Below are positions 5,454 through 61,443 of a stretch of 64,000 nucleotides of DNA, piece by piece. Location: NCBI RefSeq assembly GCF_017347585.1, contig NZ_AP024480.1, forward strand, positions 890,001-954,000, read 5' to 3'. Every line of letters begins with the position of its first letter. The stretch's first letter is position 1. Source of the stretch: Caldicellulosiruptor diazotrophicus (GTDB lineage Bacteria; Bacillota; Thermoanaerobacteria; Caldicellulosiruptorales; Caldicellulosiruptoraceae). Made by a program: the position numbers and the translations under genes. The notes below the pieces were generated by a model. That model saw only the letters and a list, made by a program, of their open reading frames with translations. It was not told the origin of the DNA and did no database searches.

Positions 5454-5985
5454 TCTCCAGCACTCCTTTCTTTTCGAGCTCTTTTATCAGAAACTTTATG
5501 GCAAAATGGAGCCTTGACCTTACTGTTCCGACAGGACAGTTTAAAATTTTGGCAATTTCTTTGTATTTATATCCATAAAAATGTTTTAGAATAAAAACAG
5601 CTCTGAATTTATAATCAAGCGACAAAATAGCTTTGCAGATGTCCTTGTATTCACTATTTGATATGGCTGCATGTTCTACATCCTGCATATAATCTTTGTA
5701 TGACTCGTCTAAGTAGGTATATCTTTTATTTTTTCTTAAAAGGTCCTTGTACACGTTTATTGAAATTTTTATAAGCCATGTCGAAAACTTTGCATCTGGT
5801 GAGAACTTATCCATGTTTATGATAGAACGCAAAAGTGTTTCCTGCACAACATCCTGGGCAAAATGATAATCTTGAGTCATCTTCGTCACAAAACCTGAGA
5901 GAATATTTAAGTTATTTTCAATGAGCCTGTAGAGAGCTTCTTTGTTTCCTTTTTTTGCTTCTTCTATTAACCTTTTTTCATCCAC
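5434..5985 (-). CDS. sigY: ECF RNA polymerase sigma factor, SigY-like
   Basis: A 183-residue group 4 sigma factor. Region 2 spans about residues 15-90 and includes the core-binding and -10-recognizing stretch DVVQETLLRSI and FSTWLIKI. Region 4 spans about 115-175 with the helix-turn-helix YKEIAKILNCPVGTVRSRL. There is no region 3. The start is GTG preceded by AGGAG at a 9-nt gap. It heads a six-gene minus-strand operon in the order of B. subtilis sigY-yxlCDEFG, and an ECF-type promoter is visible upstream, consistent with autoregulation. Confidence 0.85.
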   Translation of the reverse strand: MDEKRLIEEAKKGNKEALYRLIENNLNILSGFVTKMTQDYHFAQDVVQETLLRSIINMDKFSPDAKFSTWLIKISINVYKDLLRKNKRYTYLDESYKDYMQDVEHAAISNSEYKDICKAILSLDYKFRAVFILKHFYGYKYKEIAKILNCPVGTVRSRLHFAIKFLIKELEKKGVLESESKKE

Positions 5986-6010
5986 TACTTATCACTCCTA
6001 CTATAAATTT

Positions 6011-6036
6011 AACGCTATTGATTTCAAAAAAGTTCA
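6011..6036 (-). promoter_or_regulatory. Putative SigY-type autoregulatory promoter
   Basis: On the minus strand TGAACT (6036-6031) is followed after exactly 16 nt by CGTT (6014-6011), about 26 nt before the sigY start codon. From memory the B. subtilis SigY consensus is TGAACG-N16-CGTC, so both elements and the spacing agree with one mismatch each. No vegetative promoter of comparable quality is visible in the same gap. This is a sequence match plus knowledge of the Bacillus system, with no experimental support. Confidence 0.65.
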
Positions 6037-6160
6037 AAGTGATTTGGATTACAAAAATATTAAAAAATCTTGTAAATTTGCTTATCAGTATTGATACCCC
6101 TTTTTTGATGGAGTAAGATTATAATTAGAAGGACAGACATTATGTAAAGGATGAGTAAGA

Positions 6161-7009
6161 ATGATCAAGAGAACAATAACAAAAGCTCTGATATTACTTA
6201 TAATTTCATTAATAATAGCCCTTATTATCGAAAGCTTGTTTATGGCAGCAAGCGCTAAAAATTTAAACAAGTTACCGGCTTCAGTTCAAAAAGCTTCGAA
6301 ATCTGCAAAGCAAAATGTCCAGAGAGAATTGGTTTTCCAGCAGCAGATTGATTTGAACTCAGATGCGCAGATAGACATAGTAAGCATTTGGCTTGATAAG
6401 AACCAGAAAAAATATTTGCTGAGTGTAAACAATGCGCTTTATCAACCAAAAGAAAACATTTTGCAGGTGATTGGAACTGAGATTGTAGATATTGACAGCA
6501 GTGATGGATACAAAGAAGTCTTGTTTCATTACAAATCAAATAAAATTGAGAAATATGTTATATTAGAATACAATGGGAAAACTTTAAGGGAGCTTCTGAA
6601 TACTGATTCAAAACCAATCATTGATGGAAATAAAGAGGTCATTGTTGAAAGGAATATGGATTTCTGGGTAAAAAAAGAAAGATACGTTTTGGAGCAGACT
6701 GCATCTGGCGTGCGAACTTTAAAACTTTCTCCGCAAGAGCTTTACTATGTTGGGGTGTTTGCATATGTTAAAAGACCTTTTGTGTTATATTCGTACAGAG
6801 AACAGAAAACTAAGCTCACCACAGCAAAAAAGGGTGAAAAAATAGAGATAGTACAATGCGATCCTTCGAACTGGTTTAAAGACCAATCAAAAAAGAACAA
6901 CAAGATGTATGATTGGTATATGATAAAGACTGAAAAAGGTTTGCTTGGATGGGCAATGTTAAAAGATTTTATAAACTGCATTGACATTGTGAAAGCTCAG
7001 GGGCAATAA
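6161..7009 (+). CDS. Membrane-anchored extracytoplasmic protein of unknown function
   Basis: A 282-residue protein that I do not recognise. Residues 1-30 form one strong hydrophobic segment behind a positively charged start (MIKRTITKALILLIISLI), a signal anchor or uncleaved signal peptide. The rest is hydrophilic. Around residues 60-150 the short alternating strands with a D-N-S-D-A-Q-I-D stretch suggest a repeat-type beta fold. The last 80 residues, with WYMIKTEKGLLGWA near the end, look like a bacterial SH3-like domain. It is transcribed divergently from sigY and has its own terminator, so it is probably a single-gene unit. Confidence 0.7.
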   Translation: MIKRTITKALILLIISLIIALIIESLFMAASAKNLNKLPASVQKASKSAKQNVQRELVFQQQIDLNSDAQIDIVSIWLDKNQKKYLLSVNNALYQPKENILQVIGTEIVDIDSSDGYKEVLFHYKSNKIEKYVILEYNGKTLRELLNTDSKPIIDGNKEVIVERNMDFWVKKERYVLEQTASGVRTLKLSPQELYYVGVFAYVKRPFVLYSYREQKTKLTTAKKGEKIEIVQCDPSNWFKDQSKKNNKMYDWYMIKTEKGLLGWAMLKDFINCIDIVKAQGQ

Positions 7010-7029
7010 AATAAAGCTAATAAACCAGA

Positions 7030-7060
7030 AGACCATTCATGAGAATGGTCTTTTATTTTT
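7030..7060 (+). terminator. Rho-independent terminator
   Basis: A perfect 8-bp stem GACCATTC / GAATGGTC (7031-7038 with 7043-7050) with a 4-nt loop, followed by a T-rich run. It ends the preceding single-gene unit and separates it from the aro cluster. Confidence 0.9.
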
Positions 7061-7139
7061 TTTCAAGGACCAAAATTTATGATATAATAGATACAAAATT
7101 TCACACAAAAAACATATACCATAAAGGAAAGGATATCAA

Positions 7140-7658
7140 ATGAAAAATATTGTGCTTACAGGTTTTATGGGAAGTGGCAAGACAACCATAGGTAAATTAA
7201 TTGCTGAAAAACTCGATATAGAGCTTATTGACACAGACTCAGAGGTAATAAAAGAGTTTGGTATGACAATTGACAAGATATTTGAAGTACACGGTGAGAA
7301 AAGATTCAGAGAGGTTGAAACAAGGGTAATTGAGAGAGTTTCAAAGCTTGAAAATGTTGTTATCTCAACAGGCGGGGGAGTTGTTTTAAATCCCGAAAAT
7401 GTAAAACTTTTGAGAGAGAACGGAGTAATATATTTTTTATATGCCTCTGCCGAAAATATTCTCAAAAGGCTAAAAGACGATGATACAAGACCTCTTTTGA
7501 AAAATGGTGATAAACTCAGCAACATCATAAGGCTTTTGAACATGAGAATGCCTTTTTATAAAAACTGCGATTTTGAGATAAACACAGACATACTCACTCC
7601 AGAGCTTGCAGCAGAAAAGATAATTTCAATTCACTTAGCAAAGGAGAGTAAAAGATGA
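7140..7658 (+). CDS. aroK: Shikimate kinase
   Basis: Phosphorylates shikimate at the 3-hydroxyl with ATP, a late step to chorismate. The 172-residue length is normal. Walker A is GFMGSGKTT at residues 8-16, the shikimate-binding DTDSEV follows near 32, FREVE with its arginine near 58, and the glycine-rich STGGGVV near 78. The LID region contains the expected DDTRPLL arginine near 117. A TATAAT -10 box lies at 7083-7088. The gene overlaps the next by 4 nt, and together with aroQ downstream it supplies the pathway that feeds the trp operon. Confidence 0.95.
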   Translation: MKNIVLTGFMGSGKTTIGKLIAEKLDIELIDTDSEVIKEFGMTIDKIFEVHGEKRFREVETRVIERVSKLENVVISTGGGVVLNPENVKLLRENGVIYFLYASAENILKRLKDDDTRPLLKNGDKLSNIIRLLNMRMPFYKNCDFEINTDILTPELAAEKIISIHLAKESKR

Positions 7659-55704: not shown

Positions 55705-56832
55705 ATGATTCTCTATTTTGATGCAATCTCAGGCCTTGCAGGTGATATGCTTGTTGCATCGCTGATTGACTGCGGAGTTGATTTTGAATATATAAAGTCA
55801 AATATCTCAATTTTAAAGCTTAACGTTAATCTTTCGGTCGAGGAGAAATTTGTAAATGGTATTAAAGCAAAAAGGTTTATAGTAAATACTCATTCACATG
55901 ACCATGACCATGAACATAACGGCAATAGTATTCACCATCACAGAACTTTTAAAGATATAAAAAAGATGCTTATAGAAAGCTCTTTGCCAGAGGACGTAAA
56001 AGAAATGTCGGTCAAAATTTTTGAAAAAATTGCTTTGGCAGAGGCAAAGGTTCATGGTATGAATCCAGATGATATTTCTTTTCACGAGGTTGGGGCAGAT
56101 GATTCAATAGTGGATATTGTTGCATTTTCTCTTTGTATAGATTATTTAAAGCCTGAAAGAATAATCTTTTCGCCTCTTTGTGACGGCAGAGGTTTTACAA
56201 AATCCATGCACGGCATTATTCCTGTACCAGCACCAGCTGTTTTAGAGATTGCAAGACAAAATGGTGTTCCACTTTCCACAAAGGATATCGAATCTGAGCT
56301 CATAACCCCAACAGGCATTGGGATTGCAGCAGCAGTTGCAAGCTCATTTTCCCAAATGCCGAATATGACCATCGAAAAGATTGGGTATGGTGCAGGGACA
56401 AAAGATCTTCCTATTCCCAATGTTGTGAGAGCTATAGTTGGAAAAAAAAAACTGAATTTTGATGGCGATTATTTTGAAATATTTGCAAACGTTGATGATA
56501 TGACAGGTGAACATCTTTCGCTTGCACTTGAGAAGATAATGCAAAGCGGTGCTTTGGATGTCTATTTTACTCCAATTTTCATGAAAAAAGGTCGGCCTGC
56601 TTACAAGATTGGGGTTATAACAAAAGCTCAAAACTTTGATGATGTAGTATCTGCAATCTTTCGGTGGACATCTACTATTGGCATTAGATTTGTAAAAATG
56701 CAAAGGATAGAGATGGAAAGACAGGAGAAGAGAATTCAGGATAATCCCGAGCTGAGATTAAAGATAAGTTCTTATGAAGATATTAAAAAAATCAAACTTG
56801 AATTTGAAGATATTAAAAAGTTAACTGAATAA
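55705..56832 (+). CDS. larC: LarC, nickel insertion protein
   Basis: Inserts nickel into the pincer nucleotide using CTP. The 375-residue protein begins YFDAISGLAGDMLVASLIDC, has a histidine-rich stretch HSHDHDHEHNGNSIHHH near residue 65, FHEVGADDSIVDIVA near 125, the TPTGIGIAAAVASSF region near 198 and DDMTGEHLSLALEKIM near 256. It is one uninterrupted gene, unlike the split larC1/larC2 of L. plantarum. The lactate racemase gene larA is not in this window. Confidence 0.93.
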   Translation: MILYFDAISGLAGDMLVASLIDCGVDFEYIKSNISILKLNVNLSVEEKFVNGIKAKRFIVNTHSHDHDHEHNGNSIHHHRTFKDIKKMLIESSLPEDVKEMSVKIFEKIALAEAKVHGMNPDDISFHEVGADDSIVDIVAFSLCIDYLKPERIIFSPLCDGRGFTKSMHGIIPVPAPAVLEIARQNGVPLSTKDIESELITPTGIGIAAAVASSFSQMPNMTIEKIGYGAGTKDLPIPNVVRAIVGKKKLNFDGDYFEIFANVDDMTGEHLSLALEKIMQSGALDVYFTPIFMKKGRPAYKIGVITKAQNFDDVVSAIFRWTSTIGIRFVKMQRIEMERQEKRIQDNPELRLKISSYEDIKKIKLEFEDIKKLTE

Positions 56833-58360: not shown

Positions 58361-59035
58361 TTATACATCATCATATTCTCTGTATTTTTTAGAAAGCAAA
58401 AGCACCCTTTGAACGTAGTTTATAGTCTCATCAAATGGTGGTATTCCACCAAACTTTAAAACATTTGCTGGACCTGCATTGTAAGCTGCCAGCGCAAGCT
58501 CAATATTTCCGCCAAATTCTTCAATTTTTTCTTTCAAGTATCTTATACCACCATCTAAGTTTTCAATAGGATCATATGGATTTACACCAAGAGATTTTGC
58601 TGTTTGGGGCATAAGCTGCATAAGACCAATTGCGCCAGCCTTAGAGACTGCATCTTGACGAAAACCTGATTCTGCTTCAATTACGCTTAAGACTAAGCTT
58701 GGCAAAACACCATATTGTTTTGCTTTTTGTGTTGCAATTGAAATTATGTCATCTTTCCTAAGATTGAACCTGTTGTTAGCTGTAGGCATATAAGAATAGC
58801 TTGAGCTTTGTAAGTTATAGCTACCAAGCCGTTGGTTAAAAATGGTATCTACAGTTTTCGACTGTATGCTTGAGAATACTATATTGCTTTCTGTATTAGT
58901 TGCATGAACAACACTTTCGAAGTTTTGCGCAAATATATATTTAAAATTTTGGGGCAGGTTAGTTTTGCTTGATATTCTTTGCACTATCTGGGAAAATTTT
59001 TGAACAATTAAATCCTGAACGTTATAAATTGCCAT
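58361..59035 (-). CDS. Lytic transglycosylase (SLT domain)
   Basis: A 224-residue protein whose C-terminal half (about 105-215) is an SLT domain: the catalytic glutamate in [20 protein letters not shown] near 116, [15 protein letters not shown] near 136, [19 protein letters not shown] near 162 and [13 protein letters not shown] near 182. The N-terminal part is low in motifs and lacks a clear signal peptide. It cleaves peptidoglycan; as it is close to chemotaxis and flagellar genes, it may help insert flagella, which is inferred. Confidence 0.88.
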
Positions 59036-59073: not shown

Positions 59074-59334
59074 TTAGCATTCAAGATTCATATACTGAAG
59101 TTTCACATGATCAAGCTGTTTCACATCGTTTTCAAATGCCTTTATGTCATCCTCTGTTGCTTGCATGTGCAAGATGATAAGCCCCTGATTTGAACAACTG
59201 TCGCCTGCCTCATGAATACCAAGTCTTGTTTTGATTAGACAGCCATGTTTTGTTAAAATTTCCTGAAGTTTTGGTGCATCATGCAATCTGTTGTCCACCA
59301 AAATTGCAGCTATAAAAGTTTTGCACATTTTCAA
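59074..59334 (-). CDS. TM1266-like iron-hydrogenase system putative regulator
   Basis: An 86-residue ACT/NikR-C-like protein. FIAAILVDNRLHDAPKLQEI near the start, HGCLIKTRLGIHEAGD and GLIILHMQATEDDIKAFEND (in sequence) match the TM1266 family, often labelled putative iron-only hydrogenase system regulator. No hydrogenase gene is in this window. It lies directly after the chemoreceptor gene, 17 nt away. Confidence 0.65.
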   Translation of the reverse strand: MKMCKTFIAAILVDNRLHDAPKLQEILTKHGCLIKTRLGIHEAGDSCSNQGLIILHMQATEDDIKAFENDVKQLDHVKLQYMNLEC

Positions 59335-59351: not shown

Positions 59352-61169
59352 TTATAATCGGTATTTTGAAAGCTCTTCTTTAAACACATTTGAAAGATTT
59401 TCAAGGTCAGCAACCTTGTTCAAAAGTTCTTTTATGCTCTCTGCATACATAGAGATTGAAGCTGCCATCTGCTGAGCTGATGCAGAATTTTCTTGTGATA
59501 TTGCCGAAAGAGATGTAATTGTTTCAAATACACTTGCAATTCTTTCTGCTTCTTGTGATAGAGATTCAATTTGCGAAATTAAAGTCTCAACTACATTTGA
59601 TATTCTTTCAATGTTTTGGTTATTATTATTCACCACATCATTTAAAGTTGATTCACTCTTTGTGAGTTTTTCAAACTGTTGGGTGAGGGTAGTTGAAAGA
59701 GATTCAATTTCATCAACAAAGTTTTTGAGATTTTTGTTAATTGTCTTAGCAAATGACATTGTGCTATCTGCAAGTTTTCTTATCTCATCTGCTACAACTG
59801 CAAATCCAACACCAACATTTCCAGCCCTCGCAGCTTCGATTGATGCATTGAGCGCAAGCATATTTATCTGGTTTGAAATCTCTGCGACTGTTGATGTTAT
59901 CTTCATAACTTCGTTTGCTTCTTCAGAAAGTTTAGTTCCTTTTTGAACTATCTCAGAAAACTCGGTGCTTATTCTATTTATATCCTCAGCAGCTTCACTT
60001 ATGTCCTTTCCAGAATTGTTAAGTATTTTATTCACCTCAGTCAAAATATCTTTTGTTTGAGTTTGTTGAGATACAATTTGTTTGAGATTTTCAATATTTT
60101 CATTCAAAGTTGTTACAGCCTTTTCGATTTCTTCAGCCTGATGGACAGCACCTTGAGCAACATCATTAACAATTCCAGCAACCGAATCTGAAAGATTTTT
60201 CATCTTATCAGCAATTTCTTTAATGTTTTTAGAAAAGTTATATATCTCGTCACTTCCACCTTTGAGCAAAAGCAAATCTTTTTTAACAGAAGATTTTGTG
60301 GTTGCTAACATTTTTGCAAAGTTTTCTAATTTGTCATTTGTCTTTATAACGAGTGAGCCGCTAAAATCCAGATTCTTGAGTGACTTCAGCTCGTCATAAA
60401 TAGGCTTTAGTGGTCTTAAGATGAAAAATGCTGCAATGAACGTAGTAATGAAAGTTAAACCTGCCATAAGAAGATGATTGGCATATTCAGTTTTATTTGG
60501 GTCGAATATAAAGCTTAAAACTATAACAGCAATAGTTGAAAATATAGAAATTTTAAACTCCAAAGATTTTATAAAGCCTAAGCCTGCTATTATATTAAAA
60601 TAAGCTTTTTTAACCTTTCTATTTGTCTTTTCAAATTTAATTCTAATCTTTAGATGATAAAACCCTTCTTCATCTTTGAACTTTTCGAGTTCTTCAAAGT
60701 CAAGTTTTTCATTGAAAAATTCAGCACTTCCTTCAAGAAGACCAAGAAAATAATCATAAAATCCTCTTTTGGACACATATGTTATGTATGCTTCGTTTGG
60801 AGAGATTTCTTCAAAGATAATTCTGGGTGGTTTTGCACCTTTTATCATTCGAGTAAGCTGGCTGTGGACATCGTCCATGTATTCCAAAAAACCTTTTAAT
60901 GAAAGCCTTTGGAAATATGAAGGAAACCATTTACTAAAGGTTCTTATATTATTTTTGCCAATTTCTCTCCACATATTAGATGGTGTAATATTTGCCTTTT
61001 CACATGCTTTTTCAATCATCTTGTGAACAAGCTCATCGTCAATATCGTCTGTTGGTGAAATTATTACCGATTCGTCAAGCCCCATACCTTGCTTTGCATA
61101 CTTTTTAACATCATCTCCCCATATATTACCAATTGTTTCAAGCCAGGTTAAAACAACAGTCCCTTTCAA
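59352..61169 (-). CDS. Methyl-accepting chemotaxis protein with N-terminal H-NOX heme domain
   Basis: A 605-residue receptor. Residues 1-185 are an H-NOX domain: Trp9, Asn74, His102 ([16 protein letters not shown]), Pro115, the heme-propionate motif Tyr131-x-Ser133-x-Arg135 (YVSKR) and Tyr140. These match the O2-binding Caldanaerobacter tengcongensis domain at the same numbers. Two membrane helices follow (about 190-205 and 215-240), then a coiled coil and the methyl-accepting signalling domain with [20 protein letters not shown] near 470. The TTG at 61169 (AAGGGG upstream) gives the usual MKGTVV start; the longer frame adds 30 unrelated residues. It likely senses O2 or NO for taxis. Confidence 0.92.
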
Positions 61170-61242
61170 GCCTTCATTCCCCTTTCTAAAAAAGTGCGAT
61201 ATATATAAATAATACCACAAAAATTGAAAAAGAGCACAACAT

Positions 61243-61443
61243 TTATGTGCTCTTTTCAATTCTCCTTTGTGCTTCGCTTTCTATAAGTCTGTCCAAAAAT
61301 ATAGATTTTTCAAATACTTCTTTTCGTGCAATAATTCCTTTGTCAACCAAAACTTCAATTAGCGAGGTTATCATCAAGGTGTTTTTATAGTCAACCTCTT
61401 TGAGCTGTGAAATCTGAGACAAAATATCAATTGACCCTTTCAT
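61243..61443 (-). CDS. Small hypothetical protein before the H-NOX receptor
   Basis: A 66-residue helical protein ([20 protein letters not shown], then [20 protein letters not shown]). No family is recognised. It is on the same strand as the chemoreceptor, ends 73 nt before its start and may be cotranscribed with it. The ribosome-binding site is only moderate. Confidence 0.55.

What the first reader, a model, noticed from the sequence alone, without database searches (positions are those of the whole stretch)
59352..61169. H-NOX chemoreceptor with the complete O2-type heme pocket in an apparent strict anaerobe
Trp9, Asn74, His102, Pro115, Tyr131/Ser133/Arg135 and Tyr140 all lie at the same positions as in the H-NOX domain of Caldanaerobacter (Thermoanaerobacter) tengcongensis Tar4, whose distal Tyr/Trp/Asn network stabilises O2. 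Most anaerobe or facultative H-NOX domains lack the distal tyrosine and bind NO only. The membrane hairpin plus methyl-accepting domain suggests an O2-avoidance sensor.
Basis: partly seen in the sequence, partly recalled or inferred. Interest (0 to 1): 0.66.

Follow-up and report, generated by a model that had tools for sequence, protein, structure and literature searches.

The report
Ordinary anaerobe-type H-NOX oxygen chemoreceptor
This gene encodes a probable oxygen-sensing chemotaxis receptor of a type already known to be typical of strict anaerobes; the one odd point is that the bacterium has no recognisable way to make the heme the receptor needs.

Summary
A 605-aa H-NOX / two-helix membrane hairpin / MCP receptor lies on the MINUS strand at 59352-61169 (TTG start at 61169). 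Its H-NOX domain is 46% identical to the O2-binding Caldanaerobacter tengcongensis domain, and Trp9, Asn74, His102, Pro115, Tyr131/Ser133/Arg135 and Tyr140 are all identical.

The claimed surprise is the wrong way round. In a profile search not biased towards tyrosine, 36 of 36 readable MCP-fused H-NOX copies carry Trp9/Asn74/Tyr140, while 0 of 9 stand-alone copies have Tyr140. Reviews already describe Tyr-bearing, MCP-fused H-NOX as the obligate-anaerobe class. The genome fits a strict anaerobe: no heme-copper or bd oxidase in 12 of 12 congeners.

The gene is conserved across the genus (12/12, one copy with an early stop) and under strong purifying selection. O2 sensing is likely, but affinity cannot be predicted from the pocket: C. 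botulinum H-NOX shares the ligand-contacting residues yet binds O2 about 1000-fold more weakly.

New points: a family-specific gene neighbourhood with a CPF_0552/TM1266-like protein and a lytic transglycosylase (13/13 genomes); and no ferrochelatase or AhbD recognised in the whole class, so the heme source is unexplained. Verdict: new member of a known kind.

The parts
59352..61169 (-). H-NOX / membrane hairpin / MCP receptor gene, 605 aa, TTG start, AAAGGGG ribosome-binding site
   Evidence: same TTG start in the genus and sister genus
60624..61169 (-). H-NOX domain (residues 1-182) with heme ligand His102 and distal Trp9/Asn74/Tyr140
   Evidence: AlphaFold2 model pLDDT 89.6, best PDB matches are the C. 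tengcongensis H-NOX structures, TM about 0.9
60417..60563 (-). Two transmembrane helices (residues 203-221, 233-251) with a short loop
   Evidence: hydropathy
59355..60269 (-). MCP signalling region (residues about 301-605) with the hairpin tip [16 protein letters not shown]
   Evidence: Pfam PF00015 residues 402-553; sequence
59074..59328 (-). CPF_0552-family (TM1266-like) small protein, 84 aa with 4 Cys, 23 bp downstream of the receptor
   Evidence: NCBIfam NF052672 102.8 bits (cut-off 85); TM1266 equivalog below cut-off; adjacent in 13/13 genomes of the family
58361..59035 (-). SLT-domain lytic transglycosylase, next gene of the run
   Evidence: PF01464 E 6.9e-29; conserved order in 13/13
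61227..61257 (-). Intrinsic-terminator-like hairpin separating upstream orf66 from the receptor gene
   Evidence: z -6.1, 0 of 200 shuffles as stable
61243..61443 (-). orf66, upstream small protein of unknown family, conserved in position but ahead of the terminator
   Evidence: no Pfam or NCBIfam match; 77-100% identical in the congeners where it was found

Best explanation
It is the Tar4-type gas chemoreceptor of this anaerobe. A cytoplasmic N-terminal H-NOX domain binds ferrous heme through His102. O2 binding is stabilised by the Tyr140/Trp9/Asn74 hydrogen-bond network and changes heme distortion; the change passes through the membrane hairpin to the MCP helices and on to CheA, so the cell turns away from O2. 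Shown here: the domains, the pocket residues, conservation, purifying selection, and the presence of CheA. Inferred: heme loading, O2 as the physiological ligand, the direction of the response, and which of the two CheA proteins is used.
For: HNOB and MCPsignal matches. 46% identity to the crystallised O2-binding domain with identical pocket. Fold match TM about 0.9. One copy in 12/12 congeners and the sister genus. dN/dS about 0.03-0.05 in the H-NOX part between close congeners, as low as in the MCP part. Two CheA and eight MCPs in this genome. No terminal oxidases in the genus; rubrerythrin-type genes present. Literature on the obligate-anaerobe class: PMC8738867, PMC9814294.
Against: No direct evidence for the ligand. 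The same residues give a 1000-fold weaker O2 complex in C. botulinum (PMC7356049), and the O2-sensor role is not demonstrated even for C. tengcongensis (PMC9814294). No recognisable heme synthesis in this genome. One congener carries an in-frame stop at codon 47, and more distant relatives carry broken copies, so the gene is dispensable in some lineages.
Confidence: 0.7

Rival explanations
1. It senses NO (or NO in preference to O2), as has been proposed for the C. botulinum H-NOX; the tyrosine gives only weak O2 binding.
For: Tyr-type H-NOX domains bind NO as well; C. botulinum, with the same closest residues, has KD(O2) 53 uM (PMC7356049). The receptor is as far from C. tengcongensis (46%) as from many clostridial ones.
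Against: Strict Trp9/Asn74/Tyr140 conservation in the fused class argues that polar stabilisation of O2 is selected; Ile/Leu/Phe sit there in the stand-alone class. No NO-metabolism gene among the adjacent genes identified.
Confidence: 0.17
2. The native protein is wholly or partly heme-free, or loaded only when heme is scavenged, so that it reports heme supply or redox state rather than O2.
For: No ferrochelatase over cut-off in 37/37 genomes of the class and none in the 29 phylum-sample genomes with a fused H-NOX; no AhbD over cut-off in the class. A heme-free H-NOX from Vibrio cholerae has been described as a redox sensor (PMC7108781, abstract).
Against: His102, the Tyr/Ser/Arg propionate motif and the distal triad are invariant and the domain is under purifying selection, which an apo function would not need. 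Heme import was not tested.
Confidence: 0.1
3. The gene is decaying or a relic with no present function.
For: Stop at codon 47 in congener G008; broken copies in G018 and G036; absence from 19 of 37 genomes of the class.
Against: Open in this genome and in 11 of 12 genomes of the genus, with dN/dS about 0.03-0.05.
Confidence: 0.03

Closest known systems
Caldanaerobacter (Thermoanaerobacter) tengcongensis Tar4 H-NOX-MCP (PDB 1u4h, 1u55, 1xbn)
   Same: Domain order, length (602-605 aa), all pocket residues, strict-anaerobe host of the same class
   Different: 46% identity in the domain; Val for Ile at position 5; different gene neighbourhood; separate deep branch in the tree
Clostridium botulinum H-NOX (SONO)
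   Same: Same fused class and, by literature, same residues nearest the ligand
   Different: Known to bind O2 about 1000-fold more weakly (PMC7356049); not aligned here
Stand-alone NO-specific H-NOX (Shewanella, Nostoc, Legionella; stand-alone Bacillota copies here)
   Same: Same fold, His102, mostly Tyr/Ser/Arg motif
   Different: No Trp9/Asn74/Tyr140, no MCP fusion
TM1266 iron-only hydrogenase system regulator (neighbour gene only)
   Same: Neighbour is a distant relative (31.2 bits)
   Different: Below the TM1266 equivalog cut-off (60.8); belongs to CPF_0552 family; the genus has a separate true TM1266 protein elsewhere

Membership tests
H-NOX (HNOB, PF07700) | Profile match above curated cut-off | tested here: met
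   145.6 bits against 25.5
H-NOX (HNOB, PF07700) | Proximal His102 and Tyr-x-Ser-x-Arg propionate motif | tested here: met
   H102, Y131, S133, R135 invariant in 25 aligned sequences
H-NOX (HNOB, PF07700) | Binds ferrous heme | not testable with these tools
   Needs purified protein; heme synthesis genes not found
O2-binding, anaerobe-type (Tar4-like) H-NOX | Distal Tyr140 with Trp9 and Asn74 | tested here: met
O2-binding, anaerobe-type (Tar4-like) H-NOX | Fused through a membrane segment to an MCP signalling domain | tested here: met
O2-binding, anaerobe-type (Tar4-like) H-NOX | Host is an obligate anaerobe | tested here: met
   No COX1 or cytochrome bd in 12/12 of the genus; genomic inference only
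O2-binding, anaerobe-type (Tar4-like) H-NOX | Stable Fe(II)-O2 complex | not testable with these tools
   Spectroscopy required; affinity varies 1000-fold within the class (PMC7356049)
Methyl-accepting chemotaxis protein | MCPsignal domain with conserved hairpin tip, and CheA in the genome | tested here: met
   CheA dimerisation domain twice in G000
TM1266 hydrogenase-system regulator (neighbour) | Equivalog cut-off of TIGR03959 | tested here: not met
   31.2 bits against 60.8; CPF_0552 family instead

The most novel reading that the evidence does not exclude
The Tyr-type H-NOX receptors of this class, including the C. tengcongensis model protein, belong to bacteria with no recognisable route to heme b. 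They would then run on scavenged heme, on another tetrapyrrole, or on heme from an undescribed pathway, and spectra measured on recombinant protein made in a heme-producing host would not show the native state. Basis: no ferrochelatase in 37/37 class genomes and no AhbD over cut-off, including the Caldanaerobacter genome G023; 0 of 29 fused-H-NOX genomes in the phylum sample have ferrochelatase against 56 of 398 overall.
Probability: 0.35. Interest if true: 0.5.

Novelty: new member of a known kind. Interest (0 to 1): 0.22.

Why it matters
The receptor adds a conserved, genus-wide member to the anaerobe O2-sensor class and corrects the idea that its tyrosine is unusual. The useful question it raises is the heme source: a heme sensor kept under strong selection in a class with no recognisable heme-making enzyme. 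That can be tested directly and bears on how the C. tengcongensis model protein is read.

Tried and rejected
A genome-contig scan with the single sequence found nothing; the alignment scan worked, but its pattern contains the tyrosine, so its 80 loci were not used for the Tyr statistics. The neighbour was first read as a hydrogenase regulator (Pfam TM1266-like); rejected after NCBIfam put it in CPF_0552. The best AhbD-like hit of this genome (156 bits) was followed up and looks like another radical SAM/SPASM protein, best match TIGR04053 and below every cut-off. Window genes 6.2-23.6 kb were scanned in case they held tetrapyrrole genes; they are mainly shikimate, tryptophan, ECF transporter and sporulation genes. 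orf66 was considered as an operon member; a terminator-like hairpin follows it. The neighbour protein has no solved relative found by sequence. No paper in the library mentions H-NOX together with Caldicellulosiruptor. In the first residue table minus-strand loci were read on the wrong strand; the corrected table is.

Full report
Observation. The coordinates hold a single open frame on the minus strand, TTG at 61169 to stop at 59352, 605 aa; the plus strand there is closed. A ribosome-binding site (AAAGGGG) precedes the TTG and the same TTG start is used in the genus and its sister genus. Pfam finds HNOB (E 1.7e-42) and MCPsignal (E 3.5e-29). Two hydrophobic helices at residues 203-221 and 233-251 form the hairpin.

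Pocket. Against the crystallised C. tengcongensis domain (46% identity, E 2e-54) the residues W9, W67, N74, F78, H102, P115, Y131, S133, R135, Y140 and L144 are identical; Ile5 is Val here. An AlphaFold2 model from 25 relatives has pLDDT 89.6 and pTM 0.86, with best PDB matches to the C. tengcongensis structures, TM about 0.9. Tyr140 falls in the helix 138-151 of the model and is aligned without gaps to Tyr140 of the crystal structure. Coordinates with heme could not be inspected, so 'faces the heme' is inferred from homology.

How unusual is it? A Pfam-profile search, not biased towards tyrosine, found H-NOX in 18 of 37 genomes of the class and 39 of 398 of the phylum sample. All 36 MCP-fused copies read have Trp9/Asn74/Tyr140 (one of them, from G008, was read through its stop codon); all 9 stand-alone copies lack Tyr140 and have Ile, Leu or Phe there. 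A tree separates the stand-alone copies from the fused ones with full support. In a second, pattern-based set (biased, since the pattern holds the Tyr) the triad is again uniform; it includes a member of the Carnobacteriaceae, Alkalibacterium subtropicum (L175), so the class is not wholly confined to clostridia. Reviews describe exactly this split: obligate-anaerobe H-NOX bind O2, have the distal Tyr, are membrane-bound and MCP-fused (PMC8738867; also PMC9814294).

Host. The window genome (G000, 2.6 Mb) lies in a genus of which 12 genomes are held, in the same class as Caldanaerobacter. By gene content and genome size I take it to be Caldicellulosiruptor; no tool named it. No heme-copper oxidase and no cytochrome bd oxidase occur in 12/12 genomes, and rubrerythrin-type proteins are present, in keeping with a strict anaerobe. 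The genome has two CheA and eight MCPs.

Conservation. One copy per genome in 12/12 genomes of the genus and in the sister genus. Between close congeners dN is about 0.02-0.03 and dS 0.4-0.7 in the H-NOX part, i.e. dN/dS about 0.03-0.05, the same as in the MCP part. One congener (G008) has a TGA at codon 47, and G018 and G036 have broken copies, so loss does occur.

Neighbourhood. The order receptor - CPF_0552-family protein - SLT transglycosylase - YchF is kept in 13/13 genomes of the family, with 18-25 bp between the first two frames in most, and was not found next to any H-NOX sampled outside it. The 84-aa neighbour has four cysteines kept in all 12 genomes of the genus and passes the CPF_0552 cut-off but not that of the TM1266 hydrogenase regulator; a true TM1266 protein is encoded elsewhere. 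Upstream orf66 is kept too, but a strong terminator-like hairpin separates it from the receptor. A link between the small protein and the receptor is only suggested by position.

Heme. Three routes to heme b are known in prokaryotes (PMC10320005). Two use a ferrochelatase-family enzyme and the siroheme route ends with AhbD (these family assignments are from my own knowledge). No ferrochelatase passes the cut-off in 37 genomes of the class, with eight control genomes ringing. No AhbD passes its cut-off in the class although one control does; the best hit in G000 is another radical SAM/SPASM protein. In the phylum sample 0 of 29 genomes with a fused H-NOX have ferrochelatase, against 56 of 398 overall (Fisher p 0.022, or 0.030 by genus, neither corrected for relatedness). 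So a heme sensor is maintained where no heme-making enzyme is recognised. Scavenging is the plain answer; heme importers, a non-orthologous chelatase and earlier pathway enzymes were not tested.

Mechanism. The best-supported account is an O2 chemoreceptor for avoidance, by analogy with Tar4; PMC9814294 notes that this role is presumed, not demonstrated, even there. Affinity cannot be read from the pocket: C. botulinum KD(O2) 53 uM and C. tengcongensis 44 nM, same nearest residues (PMC7356049). NO sensing remains the main rival.

Verdict. Real, correctly described in its residues, and an ordinary member of a known class. Interest is low except for the heme-source question.

Noticed in passing
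genomes G000-G036 (class of the window genome): No ferrochelatase and no AhbD over cut-off although H-NOX is present in 18 of 37 genomes; heme source unexplained.
   Followed up: partly
59074-59328: CPF_0552-family protein with four Cys kept in the genus, always just downstream of the receptor in this family and next to no other H-NOX sampled.
   Followed up: partly
L052 (congener G008), 5515-7332: H-NOX receptor with TGA at codon 47; its MCP part is closer to the window copy (dS 0.63) than its H-NOX part (dS 2.4), as if the gene were a recombinant mosaic.
   Followed up: no
L059 (G018) and L061 (G036): H-NOX receptor broken into pieces (probable frameshifts), which suggests repeated independent loss.
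   Followed up: no
55705-56832: LarC-type nickel insertion gene reads as one 375-aa frame here but is split into about 247 + 110 aa frames in many congeners, as expected for the known larC frameshift (own knowledge).
   Followed up: no
L175 (Alkalibacterium subtropicum); L118 (Calditrichales bacterium MX18-03): Tyr-type H-NOX-MCP outside the clostridial lineages (a Carnobacteriaceae genome on a long branch and a Calditrichota record nested among Clostridia): transfer or mis-binning.
   Followed up: no
L214 (G000 C1, about 1605.7-1607.9 kb): Two tandem radical SAM/SPASM proteins beside an MFS-like transporter, the one scanned below all NCBIfam cut-offs; possible peptide-modification cluster.
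   Followed up: no
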